Source of the DNA: Actinomycetota bacterium
Lineage (GTDB): Bacteria; Actinomycetota; Thermoleophilia; Solirubrobacterales; Solirubrobacteraceae
Length of the DNA stretch: 64,000 bases
Direction: 5' to 3'
Assembly (NCBI GenBank): GCA_005884115.1
Contig: VAXW01000005.1
Coordinates: 558,001-622,000 of the forward strand
Shown: positions 40,688 through 61,886 of the stretch, in pieces
Layout of the letters: each line of letters starts with the position of its first letter
Position numbering within the stretch: the first letter of the stretch is position 1
Position numbers and translations under genes: made by a program
Notes under the pieces: model-generated
Told to the model about the DNA's origin: nothing
Databases searched by the model: none
The model's input: only the letters and a program-made list of their open reading frames with translations

Positions 40688-41335
40688 GTGGCACGAATCT
40701 CCCACCACCCTAACTCTGAAGTAAAGGTAGATGACGGCTACCTGATCGCGCTCGCCAAGCTCGGCGACCGCCATGCCTACGATCGCCTCGTCCGCCGCTA
40801 CTACGGCTTCGTGCGCTTGAAGGCGTCCTCCTACTTTCTCGCCGGCGGCGACTCCGACGACCTCATCCAGGAGGGGCTCGTGGGCCTCTACAAGGCCGTG
40901 CGCGACTTCCGCAGCGACCGCGAGTCGAGCTTTCGCAACTTCGCCGAGCTGTGCATCACACGCCAGATCATCACCGCCGTGAAGACCGCCACGCGCAACA
41001 AGCACACGCCGCTGAACCAGTACGTGTCCTTCTCATCAACGCCCGCCGGGGCCGGCGAGGACGTGCCCACGCTGGATCAGATGCTGCCCGGGCCCAGCGT
41101 GCACGATCCCGTCAACCAGGTCATCTCCTCCGAGGAGCTGCGCTCGCTCGTGGGCTGCCTCTCGAGCGCCCTGTCCGAGCTCGAGAGCCGCGTGCTCTCG
41201 CTGTACCTCGACGGCTACTCCTACGAGCAGGTGGGCGAACGCCTCGACTGCGACACGAAGACCGTCGACAACGCGCTGCAGCGGGTCAAGCGCAAGGTCG
41301 GCGCGCACCTGCAGGCGCGCGCCGTCGTCGCCTGA
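40688..41335 (+). CDS. sigH: sigma-70 family factor, SigH-like
   Basis: 215 residues from GTG 40688 with an AAAGGAT ribosome binding site. Sigma-2 contains YDRLVRRYYGFVRLKASSYF and GDSDDLIQEGLVGLYKAVRD, with the -10 helix FRNFAELCITRQIITAVKTA. Sigma-4 contains LSELESRVLSLYLDGYSYEQ and the HTH VGERLDCDTKTVDNALQRVK. The 60-residue linker and KAVRDF motif are those of Bacillus SigH rather than of ECF factors, and the place after cysS-rlmB is also that of sigH. The stationary-phase/sporulation role known in Bacillus may not carry over. An inverted repeat upstream may control it. Confidence 0.93.
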   Translation: MARISHHPNSEVKVDDGYLIALAKLGDRHAYDRLVRRYYGFVRLKASSYFLAGGDSDDLIQEGLVGLYKAVRDFRSDRESSFRNFAELCITRQIITAVKTATRNKHTPLNQYVSFSSTPAGAGEDVPTLDQMLPGPSVHDPVNQVISSEELRSLVGCLSSALSELESRVLSLYLDGYSYEQVGERLDCDTKTVDNALQRVKRKVGAHLQARAVVA

Positions 41336-43963: not shown

Positions 43964-44941
43964 TCATGGAAGCTCCACCTGCGCTCCCCGGTACTCGGCG
44001 ATCACGTCGCAGATGATCTCATCCAGCGAGCGCGACGGTGACCAGCCAGTCCAGCTCTTGATCTTGGCGATGTCGGGCACGCGCCGGAACATGTCCTCGA
44101 AGCCCGCGCCGTAGACCTCTTCGTAGGGGATCATGCTGATCTCGGAGCTCGAGCCGGTGTGCTCGACGATGCGGCGAGCGAGCTCAGCAATCGAGACCTC
44201 CTCGGTGGAGCCGACGTTGAATACGTTGCCGGCCGCACGCGGCTCAGAGAGGAGCCCAGAGAGCGCTCCGACGACATCTGCGACGTGGCAGAAGCAGCGC
44301 ATCTGGCGCCCGTCGCCGTAGACCGTAAGCGGCTCGCCCGCGAGCGCCTGGCCGACGAGGCGCGGCACGACCATCCCGTAGCTCCCAGTCTGGCGCGGGC
44401 CCACGGTGTTGAACAGGCGCACGACCGTGACCGGCAGGCTGCGCTCCCGCCAGTAGGCCATCGCCAGGAACTCGTCGATCGCCTTCGAGCATGCATACGC
44501 CCATCGAGCCTTGCTCGTGGCGCCCATCTGCAGGTCGCCGTCCTCGCGAAAGGGCAGCGCCTCGCTCTTGCCGTAGACCTCGCTCGTGGAGGCGACCATC
44601 ACGGGCTTCTGCTGCTCATCGGCGTGCGCGAGCACCACCTCGGTGCAGTGCACGTTGGTCTCGATCGCCCGCACCGGGCGCTCGACCACCAGCCGCACGC
44701 CCACGGCAGCGGCGAGATGCACGATCGCATCCGCGTCCGCCACGAGCTCGGCCACCAGTCGCTCGTCGGCGACTGAGCCGACGGTGCATCGAAAGTGGGG
44801 GTGCTCCTGAAGGTGTGTGACGTTCTCCAGGCTGCCGGTCGAGAGGTCGTCGAGGACCTGCACCGCATGCCCCTGCTCGAGCAGCAGGTCGCTCAGATGC
44901 GAGCCGATGAAGCCGGCGCCGCCCGTGATCAGGTAGCGCAT
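43964..44941 (-). CDS. NAD-dependent sugar-nucleotide epimerase/dehydratase
   Basis: 325 residues, extended SDR family. The Rossmann loop MRYLITGGAGFIGSHL, then VLDDLSTGSLENV, HLAAAVGV, the catalytic Ser/Thr region ASTSEVYGKSE and YACSKAIDEFL with the YxxxK dyad are present. RLFNTVGPRQTGSYGMVVPR and VYGDGRQMRCFCHVADVV bind the sugar nucleotide. The closest pattern is UDP-glucuronate decarboxylase or a UDP-glucose/GalNAc 4-epimerase; the exact reaction is not decided. It opens the surface-glycan island and probably supplies a precursor. The next gene upstream on its strand ends only 14 bases away. Confidence 0.92.
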   Translation of the reverse strand: MRYLITGGAGFIGSHLSDLLLEQGHAVQVLDDLSTGSLENVTHLQEHPHFRCTVGSVADERLVAELVADADAIVHLAAAVGVRLVVERPVRAIETNVHCTEVVLAHADEQQKPVMVASTSEVYGKSEALPFREDGDLQMGATSKARWAYACSKAIDEFLAMAYWRERSLPVTVVRLFNTVGPRQTGSYGMVVPRLVGQALAGEPLTVYGDGRQMRCFCHVADVVGALSGLLSEPRAAGNVFNVGSTEEVSIAELARRIVEHTGSSSEISMIPYEEVYGAGFEDMFRRVPDIAKIKSWTGWSPSRSLDEIICDVIAEYRGAQVELP

Positions 44942-44955
44942 CTAGCGCTCGCTGC

Positions 44956-45474
44956 TCATGCCTGAGGCGTGGGGCGGCGGTTATGGCGGAGCACCGTTCC
45001 ACCGAATCCGCCCAGCACGAGGATCGCGACGCCGCCGCCGATCAGCGCGAGCGTCGAGCCGTCGCCACCCGAGCTGCGCGAACGCTCGGCGCGCAGCACG
45101 CCCGCGGGCACGCTGGCTTCGAGCCCGCTCAGCTGCGCCGCGAGGCCAGGCGAGGAGCGGCCACGCCCGCCGTGGTGGCCGCGGGCTTTGGACCCGGCAC
45201 GGCCCGATTTCGAGGAGCCGCCCGATGCCGGGGGCTTGATGCCGGCGCCGAAGAGCGTTTCCGAGGGGCCGCTGCGCGCGGAGGGCCGAGACGCGGAGCC
45301 CGAGCCCGTGCGGCGCGCCTGCGTCAAGGCGAGCGCGTATTCGTGCGCGGCCGGCGAGCCCGGATCGACGTGGACGCCTTCTTCGATCGAAGCTGCGGCG
45401 CTCGCGCCGGAGGCGAAGCAGAGCAGCGTGAGCGCCACGAGCACTCCGGCGAACGACACGCCTCTAACCCCCAT
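44956..45474 (-). CDS. exported membrane-anchored Ser/Gly-rich protein
   Basis: 172 residues. A signal peptide (VSFAGVLVALTLLCFASGASA) leads to a Ser/Gly/Arg-rich disordered middle, then a C-terminal membrane segment (LALIGGGVAILVLGGFGGTVL) and a short basic tail RHNRR. There is no LPxTG sorting motif. The layout, signal plus C-terminal anchor, places the middle region outside the cell. No family was recognised. It is between the epimerase and the large fusion gene, on the same strand and tightly spaced, so it is likely part of the same transcript. Confidence 0.65.
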   Translation of the reverse strand: MGVRGVSFAGVLVALTLLCFASGASAAASIEEGVHVDPGSPAAHEYALALTQARRTGSGSASRPSARSGPSETLFGAGIKPPASGGSSKSGRAGSKARGHHGGRGRSSPGLAAQLSGLEASVPAGVLRAERSRSSGGDGSTLALIGGGVAILVLGGFGGTVLRHNRRPTPQA

Positions 45475-45513: not shown

Positions 45514-48504
45514 CTAAGAGGGCGGCGCGTGGGGGTTCCGGGCCAGCTGGGAGAGCGTCGCGTTGCGCGGGTTGAGCTGATGGGCTCGAACGTAGTAGCG
45601 CTGGGCGAGGGCGAACCGCTGGCGCCGGACGGCGATGTCGCCGAGCAGTGCCCACGTGACAAAGTTGTCACGCTCGCGCGCTAGCGCCTGTCCAAGCGCG
45701 GCTTCGGCGTCGCGCGGCTGATTGAAGCGCGCAAGCGCAGCGGCCTTGATGTAGTAGCTCTGCAGCGAGTCGGAGTCGATGTCCAGCGAGCGGTTGACGT
45801 CGGCGAGAGCCGCCGCAGGGTGCGCGGCGAGCTCGTCTTGGGCGCGCGAGCGGTAGATCTGAGCCAGACCCTGCCGGCTGAGGCTCGCGCCGGCGACGAT
45901 CAGCGTCACGATCACCGAGGAGATCCCGAGCGCTAGCGCCCGGCGTCCGCCGAGGGCGCGGCCGAGCCGCGAGCGCGCGAGCTCCGAAGCGCCTACCCGC
46001 GCGCGGCGAACGGGCCAGACGAGCGCCACCGCTGCCGCCAGCGCAATCGCGGTGACGCCCGGTAGCAGATGCATCCAGTCGACGCTCGCCTGCGTGAGCC
46101 ACGCCGTGAACATTCCCAACGCCGCGACCATCAACGCGCGGCGCAGCGGGAAGCGCAATGCGCTGCGGCGCATCCGCACCGCGCCCCAGCCGACGCCGGC
46201 GACGAAAGCTCCGAGCAGCAGAATGCCGGGAAGGCCGAGCTCCGACAGCGCCTGCATCTCCAGCGAGTGCGGCTGTTGCACGTCCTCGGTGGTTGATCGT
46301 CGCTGGAAGTAAGAGCGCGGGTAGTTCCCAGCTCCGACGCCGCCGGCCGGGTTGTCGGCGAATAGGCGCCAGGCTACACGCCAGTAGTCGTAACGGTTGC
46401 CACCTCCCGAGAGCAGCCGCGAGCGACTCGCCGAGGCTGCCGAGGGCAGGTTTTCGCCGGGTTCTGTCAGGTGAACGAATGCATGCCATTGGGTTTTCAG
46501 GTCTCTTTCGATGTGAGCGGCGGAGCTAGCTGCGAGCACGAGCGCTATCAGAATCGGCACCGCCAGCAGCCAAGATCCGGCCCGCGCCAGGCCGCGTCGC
46601 GCGTCGCTCCGGTCCCAGGCGAGGGTCGCAACGGCCCAGAGAATCCCAACCACGAGCGACGCCAGCAGCGCTGCGTACCCGGCAGAGTGACCGATCGCCG
46701 CAGGGATCGACGCGGCCGTGTGGTGGTCGTAGACGTGCAGCAGGCTCGGCCCCGCGACCGCGACGCCGCCAGCGACGAGCACAACGCCCCATGCGCGTCG
46801 CGTGCGCCCAGGGGCGAGCGCCAGCACGGCGATCAGCGAGACGGCCATGGCGAGCGCGGTGCCGCGGGACTGCGATAGCACCGCCAGGCAGCCCATGAGC
46901 GTGGCAATCGCTGCGCCGATGCCGGCGAGCACGTGACGGCGGGTCTCCGCAAGAGCGATGCACGGCCAGACGCCCATCGCGAACAGGCAGCCCTCACCAT
47001 TGATGTAGCCGAGCGGCGCGTTCAGCCGGCCGGTGAGAAACAGCGAGGCGGGATCGCTCTCCAGCAGCCGAGCGAGCACCGAGACCGCGACCGCCGCGAT
47101 CCCAAGACCGGCGGACGCGAGCAGCACGGCGGCGCGCCGCTCGTGGCTGACGAGCGCCAGAAGGAGCAGCGTCAGGGCCCCGTAGACGAGCCAGCGGTTG
47201 CCGCTGACGACCGCATTCTCGACCGATTCCGACCACGCCGTCGAGAGCAGCGAGAAGACGCCCAGGCCGAGCAGCCCGCTGAGCGTCAGCGTGGCGGGCC
47301 CGCCCGGCCGGCGAGGTCGGATGACGATGGCGACGGCGCAGACGAGCGTGATCGCAAGGCCGATCGGGACCCACTTCGTCGCGTCGTAGTAGGCAAAGAA
47401 GAACGGGCTGAGACCAGCGCCGAGGCCGAGCACGCCGAGCGCCACCACTGCGCGTTTGCTCAGGGTACGGCTGCCGATCGTCAGACCCTCGACGCCGAAC
47501 TCTTCGATCTTCTGCGTGTCGAGCGCGATGATCGCGAGGCTCGCCACCAGCACGTACAGGCCCGCGCTGATCACGAGCAGAGCCGAGCCGCCCTGGCTTG
47601 CAAGCACGGCGAGCACGGACAATGCCGCCTGGATCGCAGCGAGCGAAAGCACTACAGCGCGCGCACTTGGCAGGAAGCGCCTCGCCCGGTGAGTGAGGTG
47701 ATCGCGGCCGCCGCTGAGCACGGACACACCTCGTCGCCTGCGTGAGAAGACCACGAGGCTGGTGTCCAGCGCGGGGATCGCGATCAGCAGCAGCGCCACG
47801 AGCAGCGATCGCCAGGTGGCGGTGGCCGTGTCGGCAGCGACCATGACGAGCACGGCAACGGTGAATCCCACCGGCATGCTTCCTCCGTCGCCGAGGAAGA
47901 TCCGTGCGGCGGGCAGCGAGAGATTGCGCGGGAGGAACCCGAGGCAGGCACCGCAGAGCGACGCAGCTCCCACCGCCAGCCAGGCGTCCCCTCGTACGAC
48001 CCCGATCGTCGCCGCACCGGCTGTGACGACCAGCGCCATCGTCGCCGCGGCGCCGTCCATGTTGTCGAAGAGGTTGAAGGCGTTGACGACGGCTAGGACC
48101 CACAGGCAGGTCAGCGCCAGGTCGAGGCCGGTGCCCGCGTGAAGCTTCCAGCCCAGGTCCGTTGCCCAAACGAGAACTGCGAGTGCGAGCTCGATCAAGA
48201 CGCGCGGGGCAGCGCCGAGCGAACGGCGATCGTCGATCGTGCCGAGGATGAACATCACGGCCGCGCCGCCCAGCAGGGGCGCTGTCTTAGACGCGTGACC
48301 CGCCGCGAGCAGGACCGCGGCCACAAATCCCACCATCACCGCTGCGCCACCGAGGTAGGGCGTGGCGCGCTCGTGACCCTTGTAGCCGGTGGGCTCGTCG
48401 TGGAACCGAAGACGGTTCGCCACGGCGATCGCGCGCGGGGTGGCGAGGTAGGTGAGGGCGCCTGCCAGCGCGAAACCGCTCAGGATGCGCTCAGCGAGGG
48501 TCAC
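45514..48504 (-). CDS. WecA-like phosphoglycosyltransferase / O-antigen ligase / TPR fusion
   Basis: 996 residues from GTG 48504, preceded by GGGAAGG; an ATG at 48717 would add 71 non-hydrophobic residues. Residues about 5-310 are a multi-pass WecA/TagO-type sugar-phosphate transferase: FILGTIDDRRSLG, NAFNLFDNMDGAA, FLGDGGSMPVGF and the cytoplasmic DHLTHR. Residues about 350-850 are an O-antigen ligase/polymerase with about ten helices, SQSRGTALAMAVSLIAVLAL, a large outer loop (GNRYDYWRVAWRLFADNPAG; QPHSLEMQALSELG) and further helices. The last 120 residues have TPR-like helices (ALADVNRSLDIDSDSLQSYY). One chain would thus start a lipid-linked glycan and transfer or polymerise it. Confidence 0.88.
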   Translation of the reverse strand: MTLAERILSGFALAGALTYLATPRAIAVANRLRFHDEPTGYKGHERATPYLGGAAVMVGFVAAVLLAAGHASKTAPLLGGAAVMFILGTIDDRRSLGAAPRVLIELALAVLVWATDLGWKLHAGTGLDLALTCLWVLAVVNAFNLFDNMDGAAATMALVVTAGAATIGVVRGDAWLAVGAASLCGACLGFLPRNLSLPAARIFLGDGGSMPVGFTVAVLVMVAADTATATWRSLLVALLLIAIPALDTSLVVFSRRRRGVSVLSGGRDHLTHRARRFLPSARAVVLSLAAIQAALSVLAVLASQGGSALLVISAGLYVLVASLAIIALDTQKIEEFGVEGLTIGSRTLSKRAVVALGVLGLGAGLSPFFFAYYDATKWVPIGLAITLVCAVAIVIRPRRPGGPATLTLSGLLGLGVFSLLSTAWSESVENAVVSGNRWLVYGALTLLLLALVSHERRAAVLLASAGLGIAAVAVSVLARLLESDPASLFLTGRLNAPLGYINGEGCLFAMGVWPCIALAETRRHVLAGIGAAIATLMGCLAVLSQSRGTALAMAVSLIAVLALAPGRTRRAWGVVLVAGGVAVAGPSLLHVYDHHTAASIPAAIGHSAGYAALLASLVVGILWAVATLAWDRSDARRGLARAGSWLLAVPILIALVLAASSAAHIERDLKTQWHAFVHLTEPGENLPSAASASRSRLLSGGGNRYDYWRVAWRLFADNPAGGVGAGNYPRSYFQRRSTTEDVQQPHSLEMQALSELGLPGILLLGAFVAGVGWGAVRMRRSALRFPLRRALMVAALGMFTAWLTQASVDWMHLLPGVTAIALAAAVALVWPVRRARVGASELARSRLGRALGGRRALALGISSVIVTLIVAGASLSRQGLAQIYRSRAQDELAAHPAAALADVNRSLDIDSDSLQSYYIKAAALARFNQPRDAEAALGQALARERDNFVTWALLGDIAVRRQRFALAQRYYVRAHQLNPRNATLSQLARNPHAPPS

Positions 48505-49200: not shown

Positions 49201-50307
49201 ATGAGGGAGTCGAGCGAGGGCATTGGCCGCCGGAGGCTTGCGCGTACCGTGCTGACGCCAGTCGCGCTTTGCGTGCTTGGCTGCTGGCTCGCATCCCAGC
49301 CGGCGAGCGCTCGCGGCCTGAAGGGCATATGGGGACCGGGCGTGCGCAACGGCGTCTCGCTGTTCCCCACCTACCGCGAACTGGGCGTCCAGCTCTATGA
49401 GGACAAGCTGGAATGGAACCTCATCGCCCGCCGGCGGCCGCGCCACTCGCGCAACCCCAACGATCCCGCCTACAAGTGGCCCCCCGAGGTCACCCGCGCC
49501 GTCGCCGAAGCCAAGAGCTACGGCATGCCGGTCGCACTCATGCTCATCGGCGCGCCCCGCTGGGCGAACGGCAACAAGCCCCCCAAATGGGCGACGTTCA
49601 GACGCCCAGACTTCGCCGACTTCGCTGTGGCGGCATCGAGGCGTTACCCGTCGGTGCACCTCTGGATGATCTGGGGCGAGCCGTCGCGATCAAAGAACTT
49701 TCGCCCACTGACGCCCGCGTTCGCGTACGTGAAGCTCCGCCACAACCAGTTGATCGCGCCTCACCTGTATTCGAAAATCCTCGACTCGGCCTACGGCGCG
49801 CTCAAGTCCGCCGACCCCGCGAACCTGATCATCGGCGGAATGACCGACCCGGCTGCGAGCATCACTCCGCAGCAGTGGATCGAAAACATGCGCCTTCCCG
49901 ACGGCCGGCCGCCACGGCTTGACATGTACGGGCACAACCCCTTCTCTATCCGCGCTCCCGACCTCTCAAATCCGCCGTCGATCAACCAGCAGTTCGACTT
50001 CTCGGACCTGCGCCGTCTGAGCGAATTCGTCGCCAAGAACCTCGGCCGTCCCGCAAACCCCGAACCCAAGCTGTTCCTCTCGGAGTGGACGATCCCCACG
50101 GCCCAGGACCAAGAGTTCAACTACCACGTGGAACAGAGAGTCCAAGCCCTGTGGATCACCGACGGGCTGCGCATCGCGCGCGAACTCCCGAGCGTCTACG
50201 CGCTCGGCTGGATCCATCTGTATGACGAACTGCCCCAGCAGGCCGGCGGACTGATCAAGGCTGACGGCACCAAGAAGCTCGGGTACTTCGCGTGGAAGAA
50301 AGGATGA
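49201..50307 (+). CDS. secreted PslG-like glycoside hydrolase
   Basis: 368 residues. A signal peptide (ARTVLTPVALCVLGCWLASQ, cut near PASA) precedes a TIM-barrel domain. PSVHLWMIWGEPS corresponds to the strand carrying the acid/base Glu (usually NEP, here GEP), and KLFLSEWTIPTA to the nucleophile Glu. VALMLIGAPRWANGN and YALGWIHLYDE also match the clan A barrel of GH39/PslG-type enzymes that cut exopolysaccharide during synthesis. The substrate is unknown, presumably the glycan of this island. It stands at the start of a plus-strand run continued by three methyltransferases. Confidence 0.82.
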   Translation: MRESSEGIGRRRLARTVLTPVALCVLGCWLASQPASARGLKGIWGPGVRNGVSLFPTYRELGVQLYEDKLEWNLIARRRPRHSRNPNDPAYKWPPEVTRAVAEAKSYGMPVALMLIGAPRWANGNKPPKWATFRRPDFADFAVAASRRYPSVHLWMIWGEPSRSKNFRPLTPAFAYVKLRHNQLIAPHLYSKILDSAYGALKSADPANLIIGGMTDPAASITPQQWIENMRLPDGRPPRLDMYGHNPFSIRAPDLSNPPSINQQFDFSDLRRLSEFVAKNLGRPANPEPKLFLSEWTIPTAQDQEFNYHVEQRVQALWITDGLRIARELPSVYALGWIHLYDELPQQAGGLIKADGTKKLGYFAWKKG

Positions 50308-50398: not shown

Positions 50399-51094
50399 AT
50401 GTCAACACACGAGCTCGAGACTCCGCCCGCTGACCTATCCAGCGTAGCCGACATCTATTGGCGCTTGGTAGAAGTCCGGGCAAGGTTTCCTGGTGCTCCC
50501 CTGATACGGATTTCCCCGGACTGGCGAGAGCGCAGGATCCCCTCCGGCCCCGCGGCACGACTGCTCCTCAAGCACTTTGCCGGAGTGAGAACGGTGCTGG
50601 ACGTGGGTGCCGGCGACCGGTACTGGTCGGACGTCCTACGCCGACTGGGAATCGAGGCGCGTTATCGATCGGCGGACCTGGAGACGCATCACAAGCACGA
50701 CTACGGCGACTTCTTGAGAGTCGAGGACAACGTGGATGCAGTCCTAATGCTTGAGCTGATCGAGCATCTTCCACTTGAAACGGGCCTGCGATTTATCCAG
50801 CACGCGATCAAGCTCTTGAACCCAGGAGGGGTGCTGGTCATCGGGACTCCGAATGCCCACCACCCGAACTGGGTGTGGAGCAGCTGCATGACCCACGTAC
50901 GACCGTGGCCGGTTCAGGACCTATGGGCGGTGTGCACTCTGGCTGGGCTGGCCCCAGTCGAGGCATATCGACAGATGTTGGTGACACCGCGGCGCCGGAT
51001 CGTTCTTCCCGCGCAGCTCGCGCTGTCCAAGTTCATAGGCATCGATCCGGCGCAAGGGCTGATGCTGTTCGCGCGCAAGCCTGCGCCCTCGTAG
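50399..51094 (+). CDS. class I SAM-dependent methyltransferase
   Basis: 231 residues. The SAM-binding motif I is VRTVLDVGAGDRYWSDVLRR, followed by YRSADLETHHKHDYGDF (motif II region), DAVLMLELIEHLPLE (motif IV/post-I) and LLNPGGVLVIGTPNAHHP (motif V), as in UbiG/COQ3-like methyltransferases. It likely methylates a sugar or lipid acceptor in the glycan pathway, inferred from context. The next methyltransferase gene begins 3 bases after its stop, so both are co-transcribed. A/T-ending codons are more frequent than in the housekeeping genes. Confidence 0.88.
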   Translation: MSTHELETPPADLSSVADIYWRLVEVRARFPGAPLIRISPDWRERRIPSGPAARLLLKHFAGVRTVLDVGAGDRYWSDVLRRLGIEARYRSADLETHHKHDYGDFLRVEDNVDAVLMLELIEHLPLETGLRFIQHAIKLLNPGGVLVIGTPNAHHPNWVWSSCMTHVRPWPVQDLWAVCTLAGLAPVEAYRQMLVTPRRRIVLPAQLALSKFIGIDPAQGLMLFARKPAPS

Positions 51095-51097
51095 TCG

Positions 51098-51811
51098 GTG
51101 GGAAGGCCGTATGATCGCGCCGTCCGCCGGGCGAGGCTCGAGTACCGCGCGCACCTGGCAGACCGGGTTGATCCACTCCTCGCTGTCAAAGACGACCCGG
51201 AATTCCGCAGCGCGTGGGCCGCTGTAAGTGCGGGCCTCACGTGGACCCATCGACCAAGTGCACGGCGGCTATGGCGTCTGGCGCAGCTCCGACGCCCAGG
51301 CACGATTGTTGAGGTCGGCTCCTACCTCGGGAACAGCACGATCTACCTGGCGATGGCCGGAGGGATCGTTCACGCCGTCGATCCCCATACGCCGGATTCC
51401 ATGCAGCAACTCATGCCGTCAGCAGGCGCGGGTGGCTCCCTGCCTCCTCTCGACCCGGACCCGAGTCAGGCTTTCTTGCGGAATCTTGAGCGGTTTGGGG
51501 TGCGGGATTGCGTCATCTACCACCGCGCACCTTCCGTGGAGGTTGCCGCCAGGTGGCGTGGCGAGCGCGTGAGGCTCCTGTACATAGATGGGCTGCACAC
51601 GTATGACGCGGTTCGGGACGATTACAACGCGTGGAAGCCATTCCTTGCCGACGAGCACGTGGTGCTATTTGACGACTACCTCTGGGAGGCCGTCGGACGC
51701 GCCGTGGATGACCTGCGTCCCCAGGCAGCATCGCGGTTCTTCTATGTGCGAGGAGGCCATGCAATCTTTTCGACGACGCGACTTGCGACCTGCATCATCG
51801 GCTTGCCCTGA
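51098..51811 (+). CDS. class I methyltransferase (Methyltransf_24-like)
   Basis: 237 residues from a GTG start 3 bases after the preceding gene. Motif I is GTIVEVGSYLGNSTIYLAMA, then IVHAVDPHTPDS (acidic residue for SAM ribose), LLYIDGLHTYDAVRDDYNAW and VVLFDDYLWEAVGRAVDDLR. The DGLHTY motif with the downstream DDY is characteristic of the Methyltransf_24/cephalosporin hydroxylase-like group, often metal-dependent O-methyltransferases of surface sugars. The residues preceding motif I are helical. Substrate unknown. Confidence 0.86.
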   Translation: MGRPYDRAVRRARLEYRAHLADRVDPLLAVKDDPEFRSAWAAVSAGLTWTHRPSARRLWRLAQLRRPGTIVEVGSYLGNSTIYLAMAGGIVHAVDPHTPDSMQQLMPSAGAGGSLPPLDPDPSQAFLRNLERFGVRDCVIYHRAPSVEVAARWRGERVRLLYIDGLHTYDAVRDDYNAWKPFLADEHVVLFDDYLWEAVGRAVDDLRPQAASRFFYVRGGHAIFSTTRLATCIIGLP

Positions 51812-51876
51812 GCGCAGGCGTTGCGATGTCTAGACGGTCCGGTTACGGATCGCAACTGCGGAGCTAACATCGGGAA

Positions 51877-52572
51877 ATGGGGACGGCGCGGGTGCTTGTT
51901 GGACCGGCTCGGGGACACCGCTTTCAGCTGGAATCGCGGTCGGGTATTGGTCAGTTGTGGCGCCGTGCGTCGATCGCGATTGGGCGTTACGAGCCACGTG
52001 TCACATCGTTTCTTGCCGAAAACCTCCGATCCTGTCGGGTGTTCTTTGACATTGGCGCGTCGACGGGCTACTACACCCGCATCGCCCTTCGGCTAATGGA
52101 TCCGACCTCAAGGATCGTTGCGCTGGAGCCCGACCCACGGCTAGCAACACATTTGCGCAGCGCGTTCCAGGACGCTCGCTTGAGTGTGCGACCGGAAGCA
52201 GCGGGACGCGACGACCACGAGGCGGTCCTCGAGCACAGCCACGGTCTGGCTTCGCGCATTCGGAGCGAGTCGCTGCTGGGTCCAGGCTTCGTTGCCGGCG
52301 GGATTGTCAAGGTGCGCTCTCTTGACGGAATGGTCGAGCGAGGCGAATTGCCCTCGCCCGACGTGGTGAAGATCGATGTCGAGGGCGGCGAGTTACTGGT
52401 TCTCGAAGGGATGTCGAGGTTGCTTGAGCACCAACCGGCGCTTGCGGTGGAGTGCCACTCGATGTCGCTTCTCGGCGAGGTGCTGCGCACGGTCAACGAC
52501 CGAGCCTACAACCGGGTGGAGGTCACCCGCGGGGGCGACGGGATCGGTCCCTCTACGGTGCTCGCGAGATAG
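51877..52572 (+). CDS. FkbM-family methyltransferase
   Basis: 231 residues. The FkbM pattern is clear: VFFDIGASTGYYTRIALRLM (motif I), IVALEPDPRLATHLRSAF, VRSLDGMVERGELPSPDVVK with IDVEGGELLVLEGM (the FkbM hallmark DVEG), and ALAVECHSMSLLGEV. These enzymes O-methylate hydroxyls of sugars or polyketides. It ends 15 bases before the convergent glycosyltransferase. It is the third methyltransferase in a row in the glycan island, suggesting a heavily methylated product. Confidence 0.9.
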   Translation: MGTARVLVGPARGHRFQLESRSGIGQLWRRASIAIGRYEPRVTSFLAENLRSCRVFFDIGASTGYYTRIALRLMDPTSRIVALEPDPRLATHLRSAFQDARLSVRPEAAGRDDHEAVLEHSHGLASRIRSESLLGPGFVAGGIVKVRSLDGMVERGELPSPDVVKIDVEGGELLVLEGMSRLLEHQPALAVECHSMSLLGEVLRTVNDRAYNRVEVTRGGDGIGPSTVLAR

Positions 52573-52587
52573 CCCCGACCGCGCCGC

Positions 52588-53655
52588 TCAGTTCTTGACC
52601 AGCAGCTCGCGATATACGTCAAGTGTTCGCCGTGCGACCTGCTCCCAGCTGAACTCGGAGGCCCGGCGCAAACCCGCCGCCCTTAGCGAGGCCCGAAGCG
52701 TCTCATCGCACAGTGCCCGCTCGAGCGCGTTCTCCAGGTCGTCGACGCTCCCCGGCTCCACAAGCACCGCGCCTCCTGAAGCAACCTCCTCGGTGCTCCC
52801 GGCTCTAGTCGCAACGACGGGCGTTCCACTCGCAAAGGCCTCGAGGATGGGGAAACCAAATCCCTCCATGTCCGTGGGGTAGGCGACAACCCAGGCACGT
52901 CGATAGAGGCGTGCGAGCTCTTCATCCTCAAGATAACCAGTGATCGTTACGGCGTCGTGGAGCTCGCGCCGCGCCCGCTCGACAAGAGACGATGGCGGAT
53001 GCCCCGTCAGGAGCAGCCGAACTGCGGGCACGCGCGCACGGAGCCTTGAGACAGCCTCGATCAGATCCGACGTCCGCTTGCGGGGATCGAACCCGCCCGT
53101 GTAAAGAATCGTCGGTACCGGGGTTCGCGGCTCCGCCTCCACGGCTCGAAACCACGGATCGACCGCAAGCGGGATCTGGCGATATCGCTTGTTTGGCCAT
53201 CGCGCGCGAGCGAGCTCGAGTGTTGCGCGAGAAGTAACGATCACCGCGGCCGCACTGCGCACATGCGCGCGGAGTAGCGTGGGGTAGTAGAGGCGATATC
53301 CAACTCCGTAGGAAGAAGCGTTGTCGAGGGTCGCGAGATCGAAGAGGGTGATTACTGTTGGACACAGCGGGCGCACCGGACCCTCGCTCCAGGGGAGGTG
53401 GAGCAGGTCGAGGTGCCGAGTCAGCGCGGCCATGCATGTCTGCTCCTGGAGGGCCCGGCGCCATGCTGGCGTCGCTCTGCCGAGCGTGATCGCATCGGGC
53501 CATCGCGAGACGCGTCCCGCATCGAGGGCGCGCACCCGGACGTCGCTTGGTTGCAGCTCAGCGATAGCGCTAAGCAGGTTTCGGCTGTAGCGCGCAATGC
53601 CGGTTTGTGGCCAAAGGGTCGCTCGCCTTAGGTCGATTCCGACGACGGGTGTCAC
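52588..53655 (-). CDS. glycosyltransferase family 4 (GT-B)
   Basis: 355 residues from a GTG start that overlaps the upstream gene's stop as GTGA. The C-terminal nucleotide-sugar domain carries ILYTGGFDPRKRTSDLIEAV, RLLLTGHPPSS and GFPILEAFASGTPVVATRAG with the E-x7-E-like donor motif. The N-terminal domain has TGIARYSRNLLSAI, the usual acceptor-side opening. It is a retaining transferase of the GT4 type. It is the last gene of a six-gene minus-strand operon joined by four-base overlaps. Confidence 0.92.
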   Translation of the reverse strand: MTPVVGIDLRRATLWPQTGIARYSRNLLSAIAELQPSDVRVRALDAGRVSRWPDAITLGRATPAWRRALQEQTCMAALTRHLDLLHLPWSEGPVRPLCPTVITLFDLATLDNASSYGVGYRLYYPTLLRAHVRSAAAVIVTSRATLELARARWPNKRYRQIPLAVDPWFRAVEAEPRTPVPTILYTGGFDPRKRTSDLIEAVSRLRARVPAVRLLLTGHPPSSLVERARRELHDAVTITGYLEDEELARLYRRAWVVAYPTDMEGFGFPILEAFASGTPVVATRAGSTEEVASGGAVLVEPGSVDDLENALERALCDETLRASLRAAGLRRASEFSWEQVARRTLDVYRELLVKN

Positions 53656-54821
53656 TCGAGCTCTCCCAAGAGCGAGTAGTAGAGCTCGCGATACCGATCG
53701 AGCACCAGTGAGCGGCCGTGCGTTTTACGAACGCCGTCGAGGGAGTCCTCGCTCAGGGGGGCGCTGAGCGCCGGTGTGTCCAGCACGGCGGTGGCGGCGC
53801 GCGTCAACTCATCGGGCATGCGTGGGGCGACGATGTATCCAGTACGTCCGGGCTCGATCAGCTCCTCGGTGCCGCTGGTCTTGGCTGCAACAACAGGGAC
53901 CCGCTCAGCAAGCGCCTCCTGTATCACGATTGGCTGGCCCTCCCAGCGGCTCGGATGCAAGAGCACATCGAAGGCCGGCATCAGTGCGCGCGCGTCGTGA
54001 ACCACACCCGTGAACCTGACCCTGTCCTCGATCCCAGCACCCCGCACGACTTGTTCGACCTGGGCCCGATGCGGACCGTCGCCGATCAGCACCGCTTGAG
54101 CCTCTGCGCGAGCCAGCAGCAAGGACACCAAAGCCTCGGACAGCGTCTCCGGATCCTTTTGCACTACGAAACGACCGACCCACCCGACCACCTCCCCGGC
54201 TTGATCGATGCCCAGCGTCGCCCGGGCGCGCTCACGACTGGCGGAAAAGTCGGGATCGAGCGGTTGGAGCTCGACAACCTCCGGGATCACCCGATAGAGA
54301 TTGGGAAGGCCGATGTGGTGGCGGATGCCCTCTTGACGATTGTCTTCCGAGACTGCCACGAGCGCGTCGCAGTGGCGGGCCGCCAGTCGCTCCAACGCAA
54401 TGAACACCGTTCGTCGCAGCCGGCTGTCTGCGGGTGTATGTCCCCAACCGTGAACCGTGTGGACAACACGAGCGCGTAACGGCGCCGCAGCGAGACGTCC
54501 AACAATGCCGGCCTTGGAGCTGTGGGTATGCACGATGTCGGCATCTAGCCGTCGCAGCACCCTACGCAACGAGTGCACCGCGACCGGATCCCAGCGGGGG
54601 CTAATCTCGCGACGTAGGGACTCGACGACCGTGAGGGGGACGGTCTCAGCGGCACGGCGGTGTAGCGAGCCCTCGGGGCCAGTCTGGGGACCCGACACGA
54701 CATAGACGTCGAAGTCCGCGTTCAGCCCTTCGCATAGAGACACGACGCTTGTCTGGGCGCCCCCAACGATCAGGCGTGTGATCACATGCACAATCCGCGG
54801 CCGACGCGGTGCAGGGGTCAT
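53652..54821 (-). CDS. glycosyltransferase family 4 (GT-B)
   Basis: 389 residues. RIVHVITRLIVGGAQTSVVS is the typical N-terminal GG(A/T)Q loop of GT4 enzymes; HTHSSKAGIVGRLAA and VVHTVHGWG are the acceptor-domain strands. The C-terminal domain holds VVGWVGRFVVQKDPETLSEA, AVLIGDGPHRAQVEQ and EGQPIVIQEALAERVPVVAA with the donor-binding acidic pair, then GTEELIEPGRTGYIV. ATGA and GTGA overlaps on both sides link it to its neighbours. The sugar donor is unknown. Confidence 0.94.
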   Translation of the reverse strand: MTPAPRRPRIVHVITRLIVGGAQTSVVSLCEGLNADFDVYVVSGPQTGPEGSLHRRAAETVPLTVVESLRREISPRWDPVAVHSLRRVLRRLDADIVHTHSSKAGIVGRLAAAPLRARVVHTVHGWGHTPADSRLRRTVFIALERLAARHCDALVAVSEDNRQEGIRHHIGLPNLYRVIPEVVELQPLDPDFSASRERARATLGIDQAGEVVGWVGRFVVQKDPETLSEALVSLLLARAEAQAVLIGDGPHRAQVEQVVRGAGIEDRVRFTGVVHDARALMPAFDVLLHPSRWEGQPIVIQEALAERVPVVAAKTSGTEELIEPGRTGYIVAPRMPDELTRAATAVLDTPALSAPLSEDSLDGVRKTHGRSLVLDRYRELYYSLLGELE

Positions 54822-55975
54822 CGGTTTGCTGTCGCGAACTCGACGAGGGCGTGCCCAATAGTGTCGCGCGCGTCCGGACGCTGACCAAATCGCTCCGTAG
54901 CTTGCGCTCTGGCGCTCCGGCCGATTTCCGCACAGAGCTTGTCGTCACGAACTATCGCGAGCAGTGCGGCGAAGACCGCCTCGGGCTCCCCAGGTGGTCT
55001 AAGGAATCCGGTCCTTGCGTCATCGATGAGCTCGCTCACGCCTCCGTGGTCGTATGCGATGACAGGCCGGCCCGCAGCCATAGCCTCTACGCAGACTCGC
55101 CCGAAACTCTCGGGCACGCTGGACAAGTGCAGCAGCACGTCGATCTGGCCGATGATTTCCGGCATTCCCTCCGGGGTGGTTGACACGAGCTCCACTCCCG
55201 GCGTCTTCGCCGCGATTTGGCGTAGCCGCTCGGCATACTCGCGGGCGCGGGGGACGCTACTGCTCACGTCGCGACCGACGAGAAGGACCGAAACGTCCTC
55301 ACCCACGGCCCTAAGGCGCCGTGCAAGCTCGACCGCGAGCAGGTGGTTCTTGATCTCCACGAGATCGCCGACGAGGCCGATCGTACGCACGCGCTTGACA
55401 TCTGCGATCGCGCAATAGCGAGAGAGATCGAAGCGGACCGCTCGCACCTCTGCGCCGCGATCCCGAAGCGCAGGCTGTGATGCGGCGCAGAGCGAGTACG
55501 TGACGATTCGCCCCGCTCGCCTCGAGGCTGCCCTCCAGAGTCGTGCGGGAGCTCCCGTCGGCACGACCTCATGAACCACCCAGATCCCTCGGCGTCGAGG
55601 CCGAAGCGCGGCAGCTACTGCGAGCTGACTGCGGAACCCGAAGGAGCAGACGGGGCCGGGTGAACGTCCGAGCGCGCGCGCGAGGCGGGGGAGGTAAGAG
55701 CCAAGGGCGCACGCGCGCCGCGGCAGCCTCGACGGCTCGATTCCAGGCTGGAATCGCGACATCGAGACGAGCGCGGCGGGGATGGGAATCGTCGCGATGT
55801 TGACCGCGAGCGGCTCGAGAGCACGCGCCAGAGGACCGTCGCCCGGGACTAGCGCGTGTATTCGGATCTCTGCCTCACGCACGATGTCGAGGAATTCGAG
55901 GTTGAACAACTCGCTCCCACCCAGTGCGTCGGAGCTGAAGACGACCGTCAGGTCAGAACGACCCAGATCGCTCAT
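54818..55975 (-). CDS. glycosyltransferase family 4 (GT-B)
   Basis: 385 residues from ATG 55975, chosen because it overlaps the preceding stop (ATGA); the longer open frame upstream lies in the lipoprotein gene. The N-terminus has SSDALGGSELFNLEFLDIV, with GGSE in place of GGAQ. The C-terminal half contains TIGLVGDLVEIKNHLLAVEL, VLLVGRDVSSSV and PESFGRVCVEAMAAGRPVIA, then YDHGGVSELIDDARTGFL. It is a standard GT4 enzyme. Donor and acceptor are unknown. Confidence 0.93.
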   Translation of the reverse strand: MSDLGRSDLTVVFSSDALGGSELFNLEFLDIVREAEIRIHALVPGDGPLARALEPLAVNIATIPIPAALVSMSRFQPGIEPSRLPRRACALGSYLPRLARALGRSPGPVCSFGFRSQLAVAAALRPRRRGIWVVHEVVPTGAPARLWRAASRRAGRIVTYSLCAASQPALRDRGAEVRAVRFDLSRYCAIADVKRVRTIGLVGDLVEIKNHLLAVELARRLRAVGEDVSVLLVGRDVSSSVPRAREYAERLRQIAAKTPGVELVSTTPEGMPEIIGQIDVLLHLSSVPESFGRVCVEAMAAGRPVIAYDHGGVSELIDDARTGFLRPPGEPEAVFAALLAIVRDDKLCAEIGRSARAQATERFGQRPDARDTIGHALVEFATANR

Positions 55976-57024
55976 TCGCCGTGAGCAGGGCCCGCTAACC
56001 ACTGAGCAAGCGCGAGCGCGAAGTACGCCTGGCTCACCGTATCGTCGGCGCGTGCGAGCCGAATCGTGCCGTCTGGACGCCGAAGCTTGATGAATTCGCC
56101 ATACGCCCTGTTCGCGAGTGTCGTGTCTTCCCAGCCGCCGAGCGCTCTGAGGGCAAGCGCGACCCCTATGGGCTGTGCGCGGGTCTGTCCGTTCTGCAAT
56201 AGCTTCCCGCTCGCAGCGAATGCGTTGGCGTACAGTCCCGGGACACCCGCCCCTAGTACCCCCAGGGATTCTCTCGAGCCGTCGGCGCTGAGATCGTAGA
56301 GCGTGGTGCCCCATTCGGCCAAGGTCATCGGCTGGCGTCCTCCGACGCTTGCGTACCACCGGCCGACGGCAGCTTGCGAGGCGTAGATGGTGTGAAAAGC
56401 CGCCCGCGATCTAGGTGCGAGCGAGGTTTCGCCCAATGCTGCGACCCGCTTGAGCAGCAGCGCAGCGTTTGCTGTCAGCGCGACGTTTGGGCCGGCGCTT
56501 GCTTCTAGCACTCGCACCCCATCTCCAATCGGGGAGGAAACCCAGCCCAGGGCCGGGCTGGTCACATGAACCGCAGCGGCGCGGGCGGCCGCCTGGTATC
56601 TGCGATCACGACTGGCCGCATAGGCTTGGACGAGGGCGAGCCCGGAGAGTGCGGTGTTCTGTGCGCGTGGGACTGTGCTGCCCGACGCGCCGAAGAACCC
56701 GGAGACTCCACCACGTGTTATTTGGGCCGACAGGAGACCGCCGGCGAACTGCCGCACAAGCGCAACGGCGCGCGTCGAGCCCGTATGCATGAACACGATA
56801 CTGGCGGCTTCGGTGAGGGGGGCAAGCGCGTCGCTCGACAGCAGATCCGCCCGGCTCGACTCATCGTTCAAGAGCGATATGGCGATCGAAGCCAATTCCG
56901 CGTGGCTAATCGTCGAGAGTCCCTGCGGAGGTGCGTTTGCCTCAAGATCGTTTCTGTGCGTGCTGCAGCCGGAGAAAACGCAGCACGACGCAAGCGCGGC
57001 CAAGATTGCGGAAAGGGCCTTCAT
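55972..57024 (-). CDS. lipoprotein with alpha/alpha-barrel-like domain
   Basis: 350 residues from ATG 57024, overlapping the Wzy stop as ATGA. MKALSAILAALASCCVFSGC is a lipoprotein signal with a lipobox ending at Cys 20, so the protein is anchored outside. The body is nearly all helical with repeating pairs such as NTALSGLALVQAYAASRDRR followed by YQAAARAAAVHVTSP, and ALTANAALLLKRVAALGE, the arrangement of six-hairpin (alpha/alpha)6 barrels found in glycan lyases, epimerases and glucoamylase-like proteins. A catalytic site is not recognised. Being inside a glycosyltransferase operon, it may bind or modify the exported glycan. Confidence 0.7.
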   Translation of the reverse strand: MKALSAILAALASCCVFSGCSTHRNDLEANAPPQGLSTISHAELASIAISLLNDESSRADLLSSDALAPLTEAASIVFMHTGSTRAVALVRQFAGGLLSAQITRGGVSGFFGASGSTVPRAQNTALSGLALVQAYAASRDRRYQAAARAAAVHVTSPALGWVSSPIGDGVRVLEASAGPNVALTANAALLLKRVAALGETSLAPRSRAAFHTIYASQAAVGRWYASVGGRQPMTLAEWGTTLYDLSADGSRESLGVLGAGVPGLYANAFAASGKLLQNGQTRAQPIGVALALRALGGWEDTTLANRAYGEFIKLRRPDGTIRLARADDTVSQAYFALALAQWLAGPAHGE

Positions 57025-59598: not shown

Positions 59599-60396
59599 GT
59601 GCACGACCGCGGCATCGCTAATCAGCCGGAGGGTCCGGATATCTCCGTGTGCGTTGCTGTTTACAAGCGGCACGGTCCTCCTAACCTGAGGTCGCTCGCG
59701 GCGAGCCTGACCGCGGCGCTGGGGGGACTGACCGCAGAGCTAGTCGTCGCGCTAAACGGGGTGCCGCCTGATGATGCTGACGTTCCTGAAGACGCGAGCG
59801 TGGTCGTCTTCGAGTGCAACCGCGGTGTTCCCGTGGCATGGAACGCCGCGTCGCGCGCGGCACGAGCATCTGTCTTGTGCATAGTCAACGACGACGTGCT
59901 GCTGGGACCTGGCTCTCTGCGTCTTCTCTATGACGCCCTCACGCGTGATCCGACAGCCGGGGTGGTAGGTCCTGTCGGCACCCGGTGGGACATCGCCCGG
60001 GCTCAGCATCTCTCTTATCTGGATCTCAAGGGCCTTGCTCCTGGCTCACGATCTGAGTGCGAGGTCATATCGGGGTTTCTCCTGGTCACTCCGAGGCGGG
60101 TATTTGATGACGTGGGCGGCTTCGACGAGGCGTATGCGCCCTGCGGTTTCGAGGAGGTTGACTACTGCACCGGCGTGCGGCGACTCGGGCTCCGATGCTA
60201 CGCCGTCGCTGGCGTTGACGTGGTGCACGAGTTCACTATCTCAAGCGCTCGACCGTGGAGGCGCATCAGGTACAACGGACGAAGCGAGACGATCAAGAGC
60301 ATTTCGCGGCGCAACAAGCGTTACTTCCTAGAGAAGTGGTCGGCCATAGGTGGTTTACCCGTGATCGCGTCCGCCGTGCGCACGTCCGACCAGTAG
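59599..60396 (+). CDS. glycosyltransferase family 2 (GT-A)
   Basis: 265 residues from a GTG start. ISVCVAVYKRHGPPNLRSL is the opening strand, FECNRGVPVAWNAASRAARA the nucleotide-side helix, VLCIVNDDVLLGPGSLRLLY holds the DxD equivalent (NDDV), and GGFDEAYAPCGFEEVDYCTG is the acceptor region with the catalytic acid. It resembles rhamnosyl- or dTDP-sugar transferases of GT2. It runs against the Wzx gene and overlaps its end by 76 bases. Confidence 0.9.
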   Translation: MHDRGIANQPEGPDISVCVAVYKRHGPPNLRSLAASLTAALGGLTAELVVALNGVPPDDADVPEDASVVVFECNRGVPVAWNAASRAARASVLCIVNDDVLLGPGSLRLLYDALTRDPTAGVVGPVGTRWDIARAQHLSYLDLKGLAPGSRSECEVISGFLLVTPRRVFDDVGGFDEAYAPCGFEEVDYCTGVRRLGLRCYAVAGVDVVHEFTISSARPWRRIRYNGRSETIKSISRRNKRYFLEKWSAIGGLPVIASAVRTSDQ

Positions 60397-61886
60397 AGCC
60401 GAGCACGATTGCTGCCTATCAGCAGCGATCCCTCGCATGCCAGGCAAGCGAGCGCTGCTGCGCCGACAAGGCCCAGGAGCTGCCAAGACGGGATCGCCGA
60501 TCCGACCGTTATTACGAGCACGGTGGGAACCGTGATTTGCACAGCGGCAAGAGCCGCGACGATAACGCGGATCCGGGTTGTCGCGACTGCACCGCTCAGA
60601 CCAAGGTCCCGGACGGCACGGCGATTGAACGTCATTGCCGGAAGCAAAAGTGCTACGCACATCGCAGTGGCGACCGCAGCGAGGCCGATAGGTCCGGCGA
60701 TAGCGAGCAGGGCGAGCGCCAGTAAGAGCTGGCGGCCCTTGTACACGAGCACCGGATTCGCCTCGCCGCGCGCGAGGCGGGCCGACGTCAGCAGTCCAGT
60801 CGACGCATGAGCCGCGGTGCCGATCAAAACGAGCGCGGCAACAAGCGGGCTGAACCCGTCAACTGACCGGCCAGTCCAGACAGCTAGCGCTGGAACCTCG
60901 ATCGGCGCCGCCATGCACGTGCCAGCGACTACAAGCGTCAGGCCTACCGCGTAAAGGGGCTGCAAGAAGTTGCGCAGTGCCGGAGCGCCTCCGCGCGCCA
61001 GTAGCGACGCTGCCCTGGGAAGTACAGTTGGGTAGAACGCAAAGAGCGGGGCGACGACAAACTGAGCCGCCCGGATTGCGACGTCGAGCTCGACGACATC
61101 ACCACTGGCCAACGTAAAGCCTGCAACAAAGCGCGGCAGCTGGAAGGTCGCAAAGTCGGCTAGCGCCGAGACCTGCCAGCGGGCTCCGAACGAGAACATC
61201 TCGCGGAGTCGAGGCACGGGAACCATGCCTTGGCGCACAGAGCGAAGTCCAGATCTCAGCGATCGGCCTAGGAGCAGGAGCTGAAGCGTGTAGGCGCCCA
61301 CCCACGCCGCCCCCACTGCTTGCGCCGAAGAACTCACGCTGATGCCGACTATCAGCAGCGGCAGATAGCTCAACCACCCGATCGTCTGATCCCGATAAGC
61401 CGCACCGACGCGATCGACGCCCTGTAAGACTGAAGCTGCAACGAGTGTGACGTTCGTTAGCACAAACGCCACGACCGACCACCGTACGATTACAACCGCA
61501 GAGCCGACCTCGGTTGGCTTCAGGGAGTGCACCAATTCCGCTAACGATCGGGCGTCGAACCAGACTGGGAAGAAAACGGCGGCTGACAGGCCGATGTAAA
61601 AAATCATCGCTCTGCGTGCGACGACAATCACGGCCGAACGGGCGCCCTCGGGGGCAGCGGCCATTTGTGCGACGTAGCGGACAAGCGCCGACGCCACGCC
61701 AAGATCGAAGAGGCTTTGGATCATGACCAAGGCCCCTGCGAGCACCCACACGGCGTAGAGGTCGGCCCCTATGCTGTGCAGCACGATGGGCACCGCAGCG
61801 ATCGTGCTTGCGCGTGTGACGAGCAGGAATGCGGTAGACCATCCGAACCCGTGGAGCATTCGGCGGCGTGGGCTCGAGGATGCCAC
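60321..61886 (-). CDS. polysaccharide flippase Wzx-like (MOP superfamily)
   Basis: 521 residues with about 12-14 membrane segments beginning GFGWSTAFLLVTRASTIAAV. Typical MOP-exporter features are ALVMIQSLFDLGVASALVRY near the N-terminus and LLTSARLARGEANPVLVYKG later. It would move lipid-linked oligosaccharides across the membrane for the Wzy-type proteins. The C-terminal 25 residues (RLYWSDVRTADAITGKPPMA) are hydrophilic and coded in the overlap with the convergent GT2 gene. It follows the next GT2 gene on the same strand by four bases. Confidence 0.9.
   Translation of the reverse strand: MASSSPRRRMLHGFGWSTAFLLVTRASTIAAVPIVLHSIGADLYAVWVLAGALVMIQSLFDLGVASALVRYVAQMAAAPEGARSAVIVVARRAMIFYIGLSAAVFFPVWFDARSLAELVHSLKPTEVGSAVVIVRWSVVAFVLTNVTLVAASVLQGVDRVGAAYRDQTIGWLSYLPLLIVGISVSSSAQAVGAAWVGAYTLQLLLLGRSLRSGLRSVRQGMVPVPRLREMFSFGARWQVSALADFATFQLPRFVAGFTLASGDVVELDVAIRAAQFVVAPLFAFYPTVLPRAASLLARGGAPALRNFLQPLYAVGLTLVVAGTCMAAPIEVPALAVWTGRSVDGFSPLVAALVLIGTAAHASTGLLTSARLARGEANPVLVYKGRQLLLALALLAIAGPIGLAAVATAMCVALLLPAMTFNRRAVRDLGLSGAVATTRIRVIVAALAAVQITVPTVLVITVGSAIPSWQLLGLVGAAALACLACEGSLLIGSNRARLYWSDVRTADAITGKPPMADHFSRK

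What the first reader, a model, noticed from the sequence alone, without database searches (positions are those of the whole stretch)
45514..48504. Single polypeptide combining WecA-type initiation, Wzy/WaaL-type transfer and TPR
A phosphoglycosyltransferase with NxxNxxDxxDG, LGDGGS and the HxxH-like loop is fused to an O-antigen ligase domain and C-terminal TPRs. These steps are normally separate proteins on opposite faces of the membrane. A fusion could channel an undecaprenyl-linked sugar from start to polymer, or mark a new surface-glycan or glycoprotein system.
Basis: partly seen in the sequence, partly recalled or inferred. Interest (0 to 1): 0.72.

Follow-up and report, generated by a model that had tools for sequence, protein, structure and literature searches.

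The report
Two-face glycan enzyme plus surface partner
A soil actinobacterium makes one membrane protein that carries both the enzyme that starts a surface sugar chain inside the cell and the enzyme that hands the finished chain over outside; the fusion is real and conserved in its order, and a small, apparently undescribed surface protein encoded beside the outer half is the likely recipient of the sugar.

Summary
Window 45514-48504 (minus strand) encodes one 996-aa protein: an MraY/WecA-fold phosphoglycosyltransferase (PGT), a Wzy_C (O-antigen-ligase-superfamily) domain and about three C-terminal TPRs. No stop or frameshift separates them. The fusion occurs in at least 16 genomes (10 genera, 2 families) of one order (Solirubrobacterales by record titles), with catalytic motifs invariant. 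None was found in about 270 genomes sampled outside the class. Close relatives keep the halves apart, so two ordinary glycan enzymes were fused. Topology puts the PGT loops in the cytoplasm and the Wzy_C loop and TPRs outside. Neighbouring clusters encode glycosyltransferases and mostly a Wzx-like flippase, so the protein joins first and last steps rather than making a polymer alone.

New here: the Wzy_C-TPR half is tightly linked to a small exported, C-terminally anchored protein (AxA|Q signal peptide, conserved ~25-residue peptide with an invariant Tyr, Ser/Gly-rich linker, TM, Arg tail). Of 33 genomes with it, 31 have this Wzy_C-TPR clade (p about 4e-30, uncorrected for phylogeny); 27 of 32 pairs lie within 300 bp, also where no PGT is fused. 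Best reading: the outer half is a WsfB-like O-oligosaccharyltransferase and the small protein its dedicated acceptor. This is inferred, not shown.

The parts
45514..48504 (-). Fusion gene, 996 aa: PGT - Wzy_C - TPR
   Evidence: One open frame; start supported by RBS and relatives' starts; Pfam; full-length relatives
47521..48504 (-). Polytopic phosphoglycosyltransferase half, residues 1-328, cytoplasmic catalytic loops DDR, NxxNxxDxxDG, LGDGGS, HLTHR
   Evidence: PF00953; AlphaFold model pLDDT 83, pTM 0.87; Foldseek best hits are MraY, then DPAGT1, E 1e-9 to 1e-6
47446..47520 (-). Cytoplasmic linker, residues 329-353 (fusion junction, variable)
   Evidence: Hydropathy and charge; variable in alignment
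45880..47445 (-). Wzy_C membrane half, residues 354-875
   Evidence: PF04932; weak fold match to WaaL 7tpg, E 5e-3
46240..46524 (-). Large extracytoplasmic loop, residues 661-755, with conserved GNRYDYWR and QPHS
   Evidence: R704, Y705, W708, R709 invariant, H746 nearly invariant; topology
45517..45879 (-). C-terminal TPR tail, residues 876-996, predicted extracytoplasmic
   Evidence: Profile against solved TPRs, E 9e-36; model helices; topology
44956..45474 (-). Small exported, C-terminally membrane-anchored partner protein, 172 aa (candidate glycan acceptor)
   Evidence: Conserved family; co-occurrence and adjacency with the Wzy_C-TPR half
43964..44941 (-). NAD-dependent nucleotide-sugar epimerase/dehydratase, 325 aa, conserved neighbour
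   Evidence: PF16363/PF01370; NCBIfam hits all below cut-off; matched in 11 of 15 neighbourhoods compared
50399..52572 (+). Three methyltransferase genes of the glycan cluster
   Evidence: PF13489, PF13578, PF05050 (FkbM)
52588..56359 (-). Three GT4-type glycosyltransferase genes of the cluster
   Evidence: PF00534/PF13692
57021..58481 (-). Second, TPR-less Wzy_C-type membrane protein; candidate chain polymerase
   Evidence: PF04932 E 8e-6, 26 bits, below the 31.7 cut-off
60321..61886 (-). Wzx-like membrane protein (about 10 TM); candidate flippase
   Evidence: Only a weak NCBIfam WZX_like hit, E 0.009; sequence and TM count; PF01943/PF13440 proteins in other clusters

Best explanation
The protein couples the two ends of a Wzx-dependent glycan pathway. 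The N-terminal half (11 predicted TM, N-out) puts a hexosamine-1-phosphate on undecaprenyl phosphate at the cytoplasmic face. Separate glycosyltransferases and modifying enzymes build the unit, a Wzx-type flippase turns it outward, and the Wzy_C half moves it from undecaprenyl diphosphate to an acceptor outside. The TPR tail faces outward beside that active site and most likely grips the conserved N-terminal peptide of the small anchored partner protein, which I take to be the glycan acceptor; the invariant Tyr of its PxxxxYxLP motif, or a Ser/Thr of its linker, would be the attachment site. Shown by computation: the fusion, its conservation, intact motifs, a consistent topology, TPR identity, and linkage of the partner to the Wzy_C-TPR half. 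Inferred: the enzymatic activities, the sugar, TPR-peptide binding, and that the partner is the acceptor rather than a regulator.
For: Fusion real and old: in at least 16 genomes, 10 genera, 2 families; a single fused PGT clade is not rejected (AU p 0.58). PGT half: PF00953, MraY fold, invariant motifs. Topology: positive-inside loops put all PGT motif loops inside and the 661-755 loop and TPRs outside. Pathway setting: glycosyltransferases, epimerase, methyltransferases, Wzx-type proteins. Partner: strong profile hits in 33 of 232 genomes, 31 of them with the Wzy_C-TPR clade (Fisher p 4e-30; 3e-20 without the 12 seed genomes); 27 of 32 same-contig pairs within 300 bp. It tracks the Wzy_C-TPR half, not the PGT: adjacent in G133, G136, G523, G524, G525, G559, G562, G605, G617, where that half is unfused. 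Precedents: O-OTase genes often lie beside their acceptor genes (21 of 31 beside or near pilin homologues, PMC3643930); WsfB and PglL carry Wzy_C plus TPR, and P. alvei, whose predicted O-OTase is WsfB, has a tyrosine-glycosylated S-layer protein (PMC2943079).
Against: No biochemistry. No PglL_A Pfam hit, so it is not a PglL-type O-OTase by sequence. Wzy_C alone cannot tell ligase, protein transferase and polymerase apart. The partner could be a co-polymerase, scaffold or regulator. Four partner genes lie 8-20 kb from the transferase half (G124, G087, G184, G540), and one fused genome (G226) gave no partner hit. The Tyr is invariant but so is a Pro and almost so an Arg, as a pure binding motif would also give.
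Confidence: 0.5

Rival explanations
1. The Wzy_C-TPR half is a polymerase of lipid-linked units and the small protein is a chain-length regulator or co-polymerase, comparable in role to Wzz. The fusion then ties initiation to polymerisation.
For: Wzy polymerases and ligases share Wzy_C-like features (established knowledge); the partner has a C-terminal TM and a hydrophobic N-terminus; TPRs occur in polysaccharide export scaffolds (reference 99 in PMC2943079).
Against: The partner's N-terminus looks like a cleaved signal peptide (AxA then Q or similar in 12 of 13), its outer part is low-complexity and Ser/Gly/Ala-rich rather than a folded Wzz domain, and it has no Pfam match. The window and G087 clusters hold a second Wzy_C protein without TPR.
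Confidence: 0.25
2. The Wzy_C half is a ligase for a non-protein acceptor (peptidoglycan, glycolipid or an anchor glycan). The small protein is a TPR-docked tether or activator that places the ligase at the wall.
For: Related organisms are actinobacteria in which no LPS core is known to me; anchored proteins with flexible linkers can act as tethers; TPRs mediate protein-protein contacts.
Against: Dedicated one-to-one gene linkage with an exported, Ser/Thr-containing low-complexity protein is a usual signature of an O-OTase and its acceptor (PMC3643930).
Confidence: 0.2
3. The junction is an assembly or annotation artefact, or the fusion is a pseudogene.
For: In G649 the junction falls in a run of N, in G184 an antiparallel gene lies between the halves, and in G540 the halves are overlapping tandem frames.
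Against: Full-length open frames with invariant motifs in many independent assemblies.
Confidence: 0.02

Closest known systems
WecA/TagO/MraY polytopic phosphoglycosyltransferases (PF00953; TIGR02380 WecA)
   Same: Fold (MraY and DPAGT1 best structural hits), 11-TM layout, catalytic motifs, and likely reaction on undecaprenyl phosphate.
   Different: Well below the WecA equivalog cut-off (103 against 326 bits); fused at the C-terminus to a Wzy_C-TPR protein.
WsfB of Paenibacillus alvei (predicted S-layer O-oligosaccharyltransferase with Wzy_C and TPR; PMC2943079)
   Same: Wzy_C followed by C-terminal TPR; works downstream of an initiating PGT in a glycan cluster of a monoderm bacterium.
   Different: Here the initiating PGT is on the same chain and is polytopic, whereas WsfP is of the WbaP type; the presumed acceptor is a small anchored protein, not an S-layer protein.
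PglL/PilO O-oligosaccharyltransferases beside their pilin acceptors (PMC3643930)
   Same: Wzy_C-type membrane enzyme encoded next to an exported acceptor candidate.
   Different: No PglL_A Pfam match; the partner is not a pilin; PGT fusion.
Stand-alone Wzy_C-TPR proteins of Actinomycetota
   Same: Clear homologues of the C-terminal half (about 30-36% identity over 600 aa).
   Different: No PGT, and for the more distant ones no partner motif within the roughly 1.4 kb flanks scanned.

Membership tests
Polytopic PGT superfamily (PF00953) | Pfam match above gathering score | tested here: met
   89 bits against 27
Polytopic PGT superfamily (PF00953) | Conserved acidic, NxxNxxDxxDG, LGDGGS and HxxH loops, all cytoplasmic | tested here: met
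   Invariant or nearly so in 12 sequences; loop charge
Polytopic PGT superfamily (PF00953) | MraY-like fold | tested here: met
   AlphaFold pLDDT 83; Foldseek E 1e-9, TM about 0.7 to MraY
WecA (TIGR02380 equivalog) | Score above equivalog cut-off | tested here: not met
   103 against 326.05 bits; not filed as WecA, sugar specificity open
Wzy_C / O-antigen ligase superfamily (PF04932) | Pfam match above gathering score | tested here: met
   53.7 against 31.7 bits
Wzy_C / O-antigen ligase superfamily (PF04932) | Essential Arg and His residues (WaaL R215, R288, H338; PglL R224, R298, H349; PMC3643930) | tested here: inconclusive
   R704, R709 invariant and H746 nearly so in the large loop, R493 and R547 invariant; residue-by-residue match to WaaL not established, fold hit to 7tpg weak
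PglL-type O-OTase | PglL_A / PglL_B motifs | tested here: not met
   No PglL_A hit in the Pfam scan at E 0.01; PglL_B not searched separately; PilO lacks the motifs too (PMC3643930)
WsfB-like Wzy_C-TPR transferase | TPR C-terminal to Wzy_C | tested here: met
WsfB-like Wzy_C-TPR transferase | Transfers glycan to a surface protein | not testable with these tools
   Needs glycoprotein analysis
WaaL LPS ligase | Acceptor is lipid A-core | not testable with these tools
   Related records are Solirubrobacterales, in which no LPS is known to me

The most novel reading that the evidence does not exclude
A bacterial protein-glycosylation system in which one polypeptide performs both the first and the last membrane steps on opposite faces, with TPRs that capture a dedicated small tethered acceptor and glycosylate its single invariant tyrosine, thereby planting a polysaccharide on the surface of an actinobacterium.
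Probability: 0.25. Interest if true: 0.8.

Novelty: new variant of a known kind. Interest (0 to 1): 0.6.

Why it matters
Initiation and transfer of lipid-linked glycans are treated as separate proteins that meet only through the shared lipid carrier. A natural fusion shows selection for joining them and gives a ready system for asking whether initiation and transfer communicate. The partner family, with one invariant Tyr and a fixed motif at the predicted mature N-terminus, turns an orphan Wzy_C-TPR group into a testable enzyme-acceptor pair in bacteria whose surface glycans are hardly studied, and could give a short acceptor tag for glycoengineering.

Tried and rejected
Lost stop or frameshift at the junction: rejected by conservation. 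Fusion widespread in the phylum: not seen in about 270 genomes outside the class; long frames there turned out to be PGT-DUF4012, PGT-GT4 or, probably, spurious extensions. Tandem unfused state in G649: uninformative, the junction is a run of N; G540 could be tandem genes or a frameshift. Exosortase-type processing of the partner's C-terminus: no PF09721 match in the own genome. A narrower DNA pattern for the partner was too strict and missed known members. A phylum search with the alignment failed on the server and was replaced by the single-protein search. Whole-protein fold search gave mainly TPR hits and a weak WaaL hit because the full model was only pLDDT 67.5. BLAST of the window's Wzx-like protein against a PF01943 protein of another cluster gave nothing. 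Literature searches for a PGT-Wzy_C fusion listed no paper that describes one by title or abstract; the library holds open-licence papers only.

Full report
Observation. The window encodes, on the minus strand at 45514-48504, a single 996-residue open frame. The GTG start at 48504 has a plausible ribosome site, and relatives begin at the same residue with ATG. Pfam finds Glycos_transf_4 and Wzy_C above their cut-offs and a sub-threshold TPR. A profile of eleven relatives matches designed TPR proteins at E 9e-36.

Is it an artefact? No. Full-length relatives at about 43-64% identity occur in many independent assemblies. Of 232 genomes of the order, at least 16 in 10 genera and 2 families carry the fusion, counting three contig-end cases that cross the junction. 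In about 270 genomes outside the class only separate PGTs or separate Wzy_C-TPR proteins were seen. The PGT tree does not reject one fused clade (AU p 0.58), and the Wzy_C half of the fused proteins falls in a fully supported clade. G184 falls inside that clade but has the halves as two genes, with an antiparallel gene between them that reads, by eye, as a nucleotide-sugar dehydrogenase, so it looks like a later split. Unfused relatives include G523, G524, G525 and G559.

Topology and fold. Alignment-averaged hydropathy lists 24 helices. By inspection of that output I add two weaker ones near residues 98-118 and 437-455, which makes 11 for the PGT half and 15 for the rest. With these, the DDR, NxxNxxDxxDG, LGDGGS and HLTHR loops are cytoplasmic, the linker 329-353 is cytoplasmic, and the 661-755 loop and the TPR tail are outside; the Lys/Arg-rich loops fall on the inside. 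This is a rule-based estimate, not a trained predictor. The PGT half alone models well (pLDDT 83, pTM 0.87), and its best structural matches are MraY and human DPAGT1. The full-length model is only moderate (pLDDT 67.5); its search recovers TPRs and, weakly, WaaL.

Setting. Around the gene lie a nucleotide-sugar epimerase, three methyltransferases, several GT4/GT2 glycosyltransferases, a second Wzy_C-type protein without TPR and a Wzx-like membrane protein. Related clusters hold Wzx-type flippases (PF01943/PF13440), asparagine-synthase-like enzymes and further epimerases. The fusion therefore covers the first and last steps of a longer pathway.

The partner. Immediately downstream in the window (44956-45474) is a 172-aa protein with a signal peptide, a conserved stretch at the predicted mature N-terminus (window IEEGVHVDPGSPAAHEYALALTQAR; family consensus roughly QEDGVxxDPGSPAxxEYxLPxxxAR), a Ser/Gly/Ala-rich linker, a C-terminal TM and an Arg tail. 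No library names it. In 249 class genomes a seven-sequence profile gave strong hits only in genomes with the fusion, the split pair or, in G133, an adjacent unfused Wzy_C-TPR gene. A DNA pattern drawn from the motif hit five of these genomes, all with the fusion. Order-wide, 33 genomes have a strong partner hit and 31 of them have the Wzy_C-TPR clade (Fisher p 4e-30; 3e-20 without the twelve genomes that seeded the profile). Of 32 same-contig pairs 27 lie within 300 bp, in the same or divergent orientation. These p-values ignore shared ancestry, and the profile search scored at most 14 candidates a genome, so absences are soft. The partner stays beside the Wzy_C-TPR gene where no PGT is fused (G133, G136, G523, G524, G525, G559, G562, G605, G617), so it belongs functionally to the outer half. 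Across 31 distinct motif windows the Pro at -5 and the Tyr are constant and Arg +8 nearly so. The Tyr was part of the search expression, but the two sequences that failed the expression do not contradict it: one has the Tyr, the other was a wrong frame.

Mechanism. Known O-OTases are often encoded next to their acceptors, with PglL homologues beside or near pilins in 21 of 31 cases (PMC3643930). WsfB of P. alvei combines Wzy_C with a C-terminal TPR, and S-layer glycans of that organism are linked to tyrosine (PMC2943079). By analogy I propose that the outer half transfers the glycan to the small anchored protein, with the TPRs holding its conserved peptide. The enzymatic steps and the acceptor identity are inferred. 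A polymerase plus co-polymerase, or a ligase plus tether, are the main rivals.

Novelty. Each half belongs to a known superfamily; the combination and the partner family are not described in anything I could find in an open-licence library, which is not proof of absence. I rate it a new variant of a known kind.

Noticed in passing
L065:5869-7767 (-), L066:6105-8291 (+): Another family of the class has a different PGT fusion: Glycos_transf_4 followed by a CoA_binding_3 (FlaA1/CapD-type) domain in one 600-730 aa frame; tree neighbours suggest it in several genomes.
   Followed up: partly
L113:2431-5331 (+), L114:88-2982 (-): PGT fused to DUF4012 in one ~966-aa frame in two genomes of another family of the phylum.
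   Followed up: partly
L118:2202-4568 (+): PGT fused to a GT4-type glycosyltransferase (789 aa frame) in one genome of the phylum.
   Followed up: partly
window 49201-50304 (+): Protein of about 368 aa without any Pfam or NCBIfam match, conserved near the fusion in L006, L009, L012, L014 and L069; L069's copy has a signal-peptide-like start.
   Followed up: partly
L069:14840-15769 (-); L144:2961-4034 (-): Extra truncated copies of the Wzy_C loop plus TPR region beside the full gene, in L069 with an epimerase gene nearby.
   Followed up: no
whole genome G000: About ten Wzy_C proteins in a 3.1-Mb genome, several in open frames of 690-900 aa, suggesting many parallel glycan systems.
   Followed up: no
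window 41488-42855 (+): Secreted-looking, beta-rich repeat-like protein of 456 aa without significant Pfam match, next to an ECF-type sigma factor gene (40688-41332).
   Followed up: no
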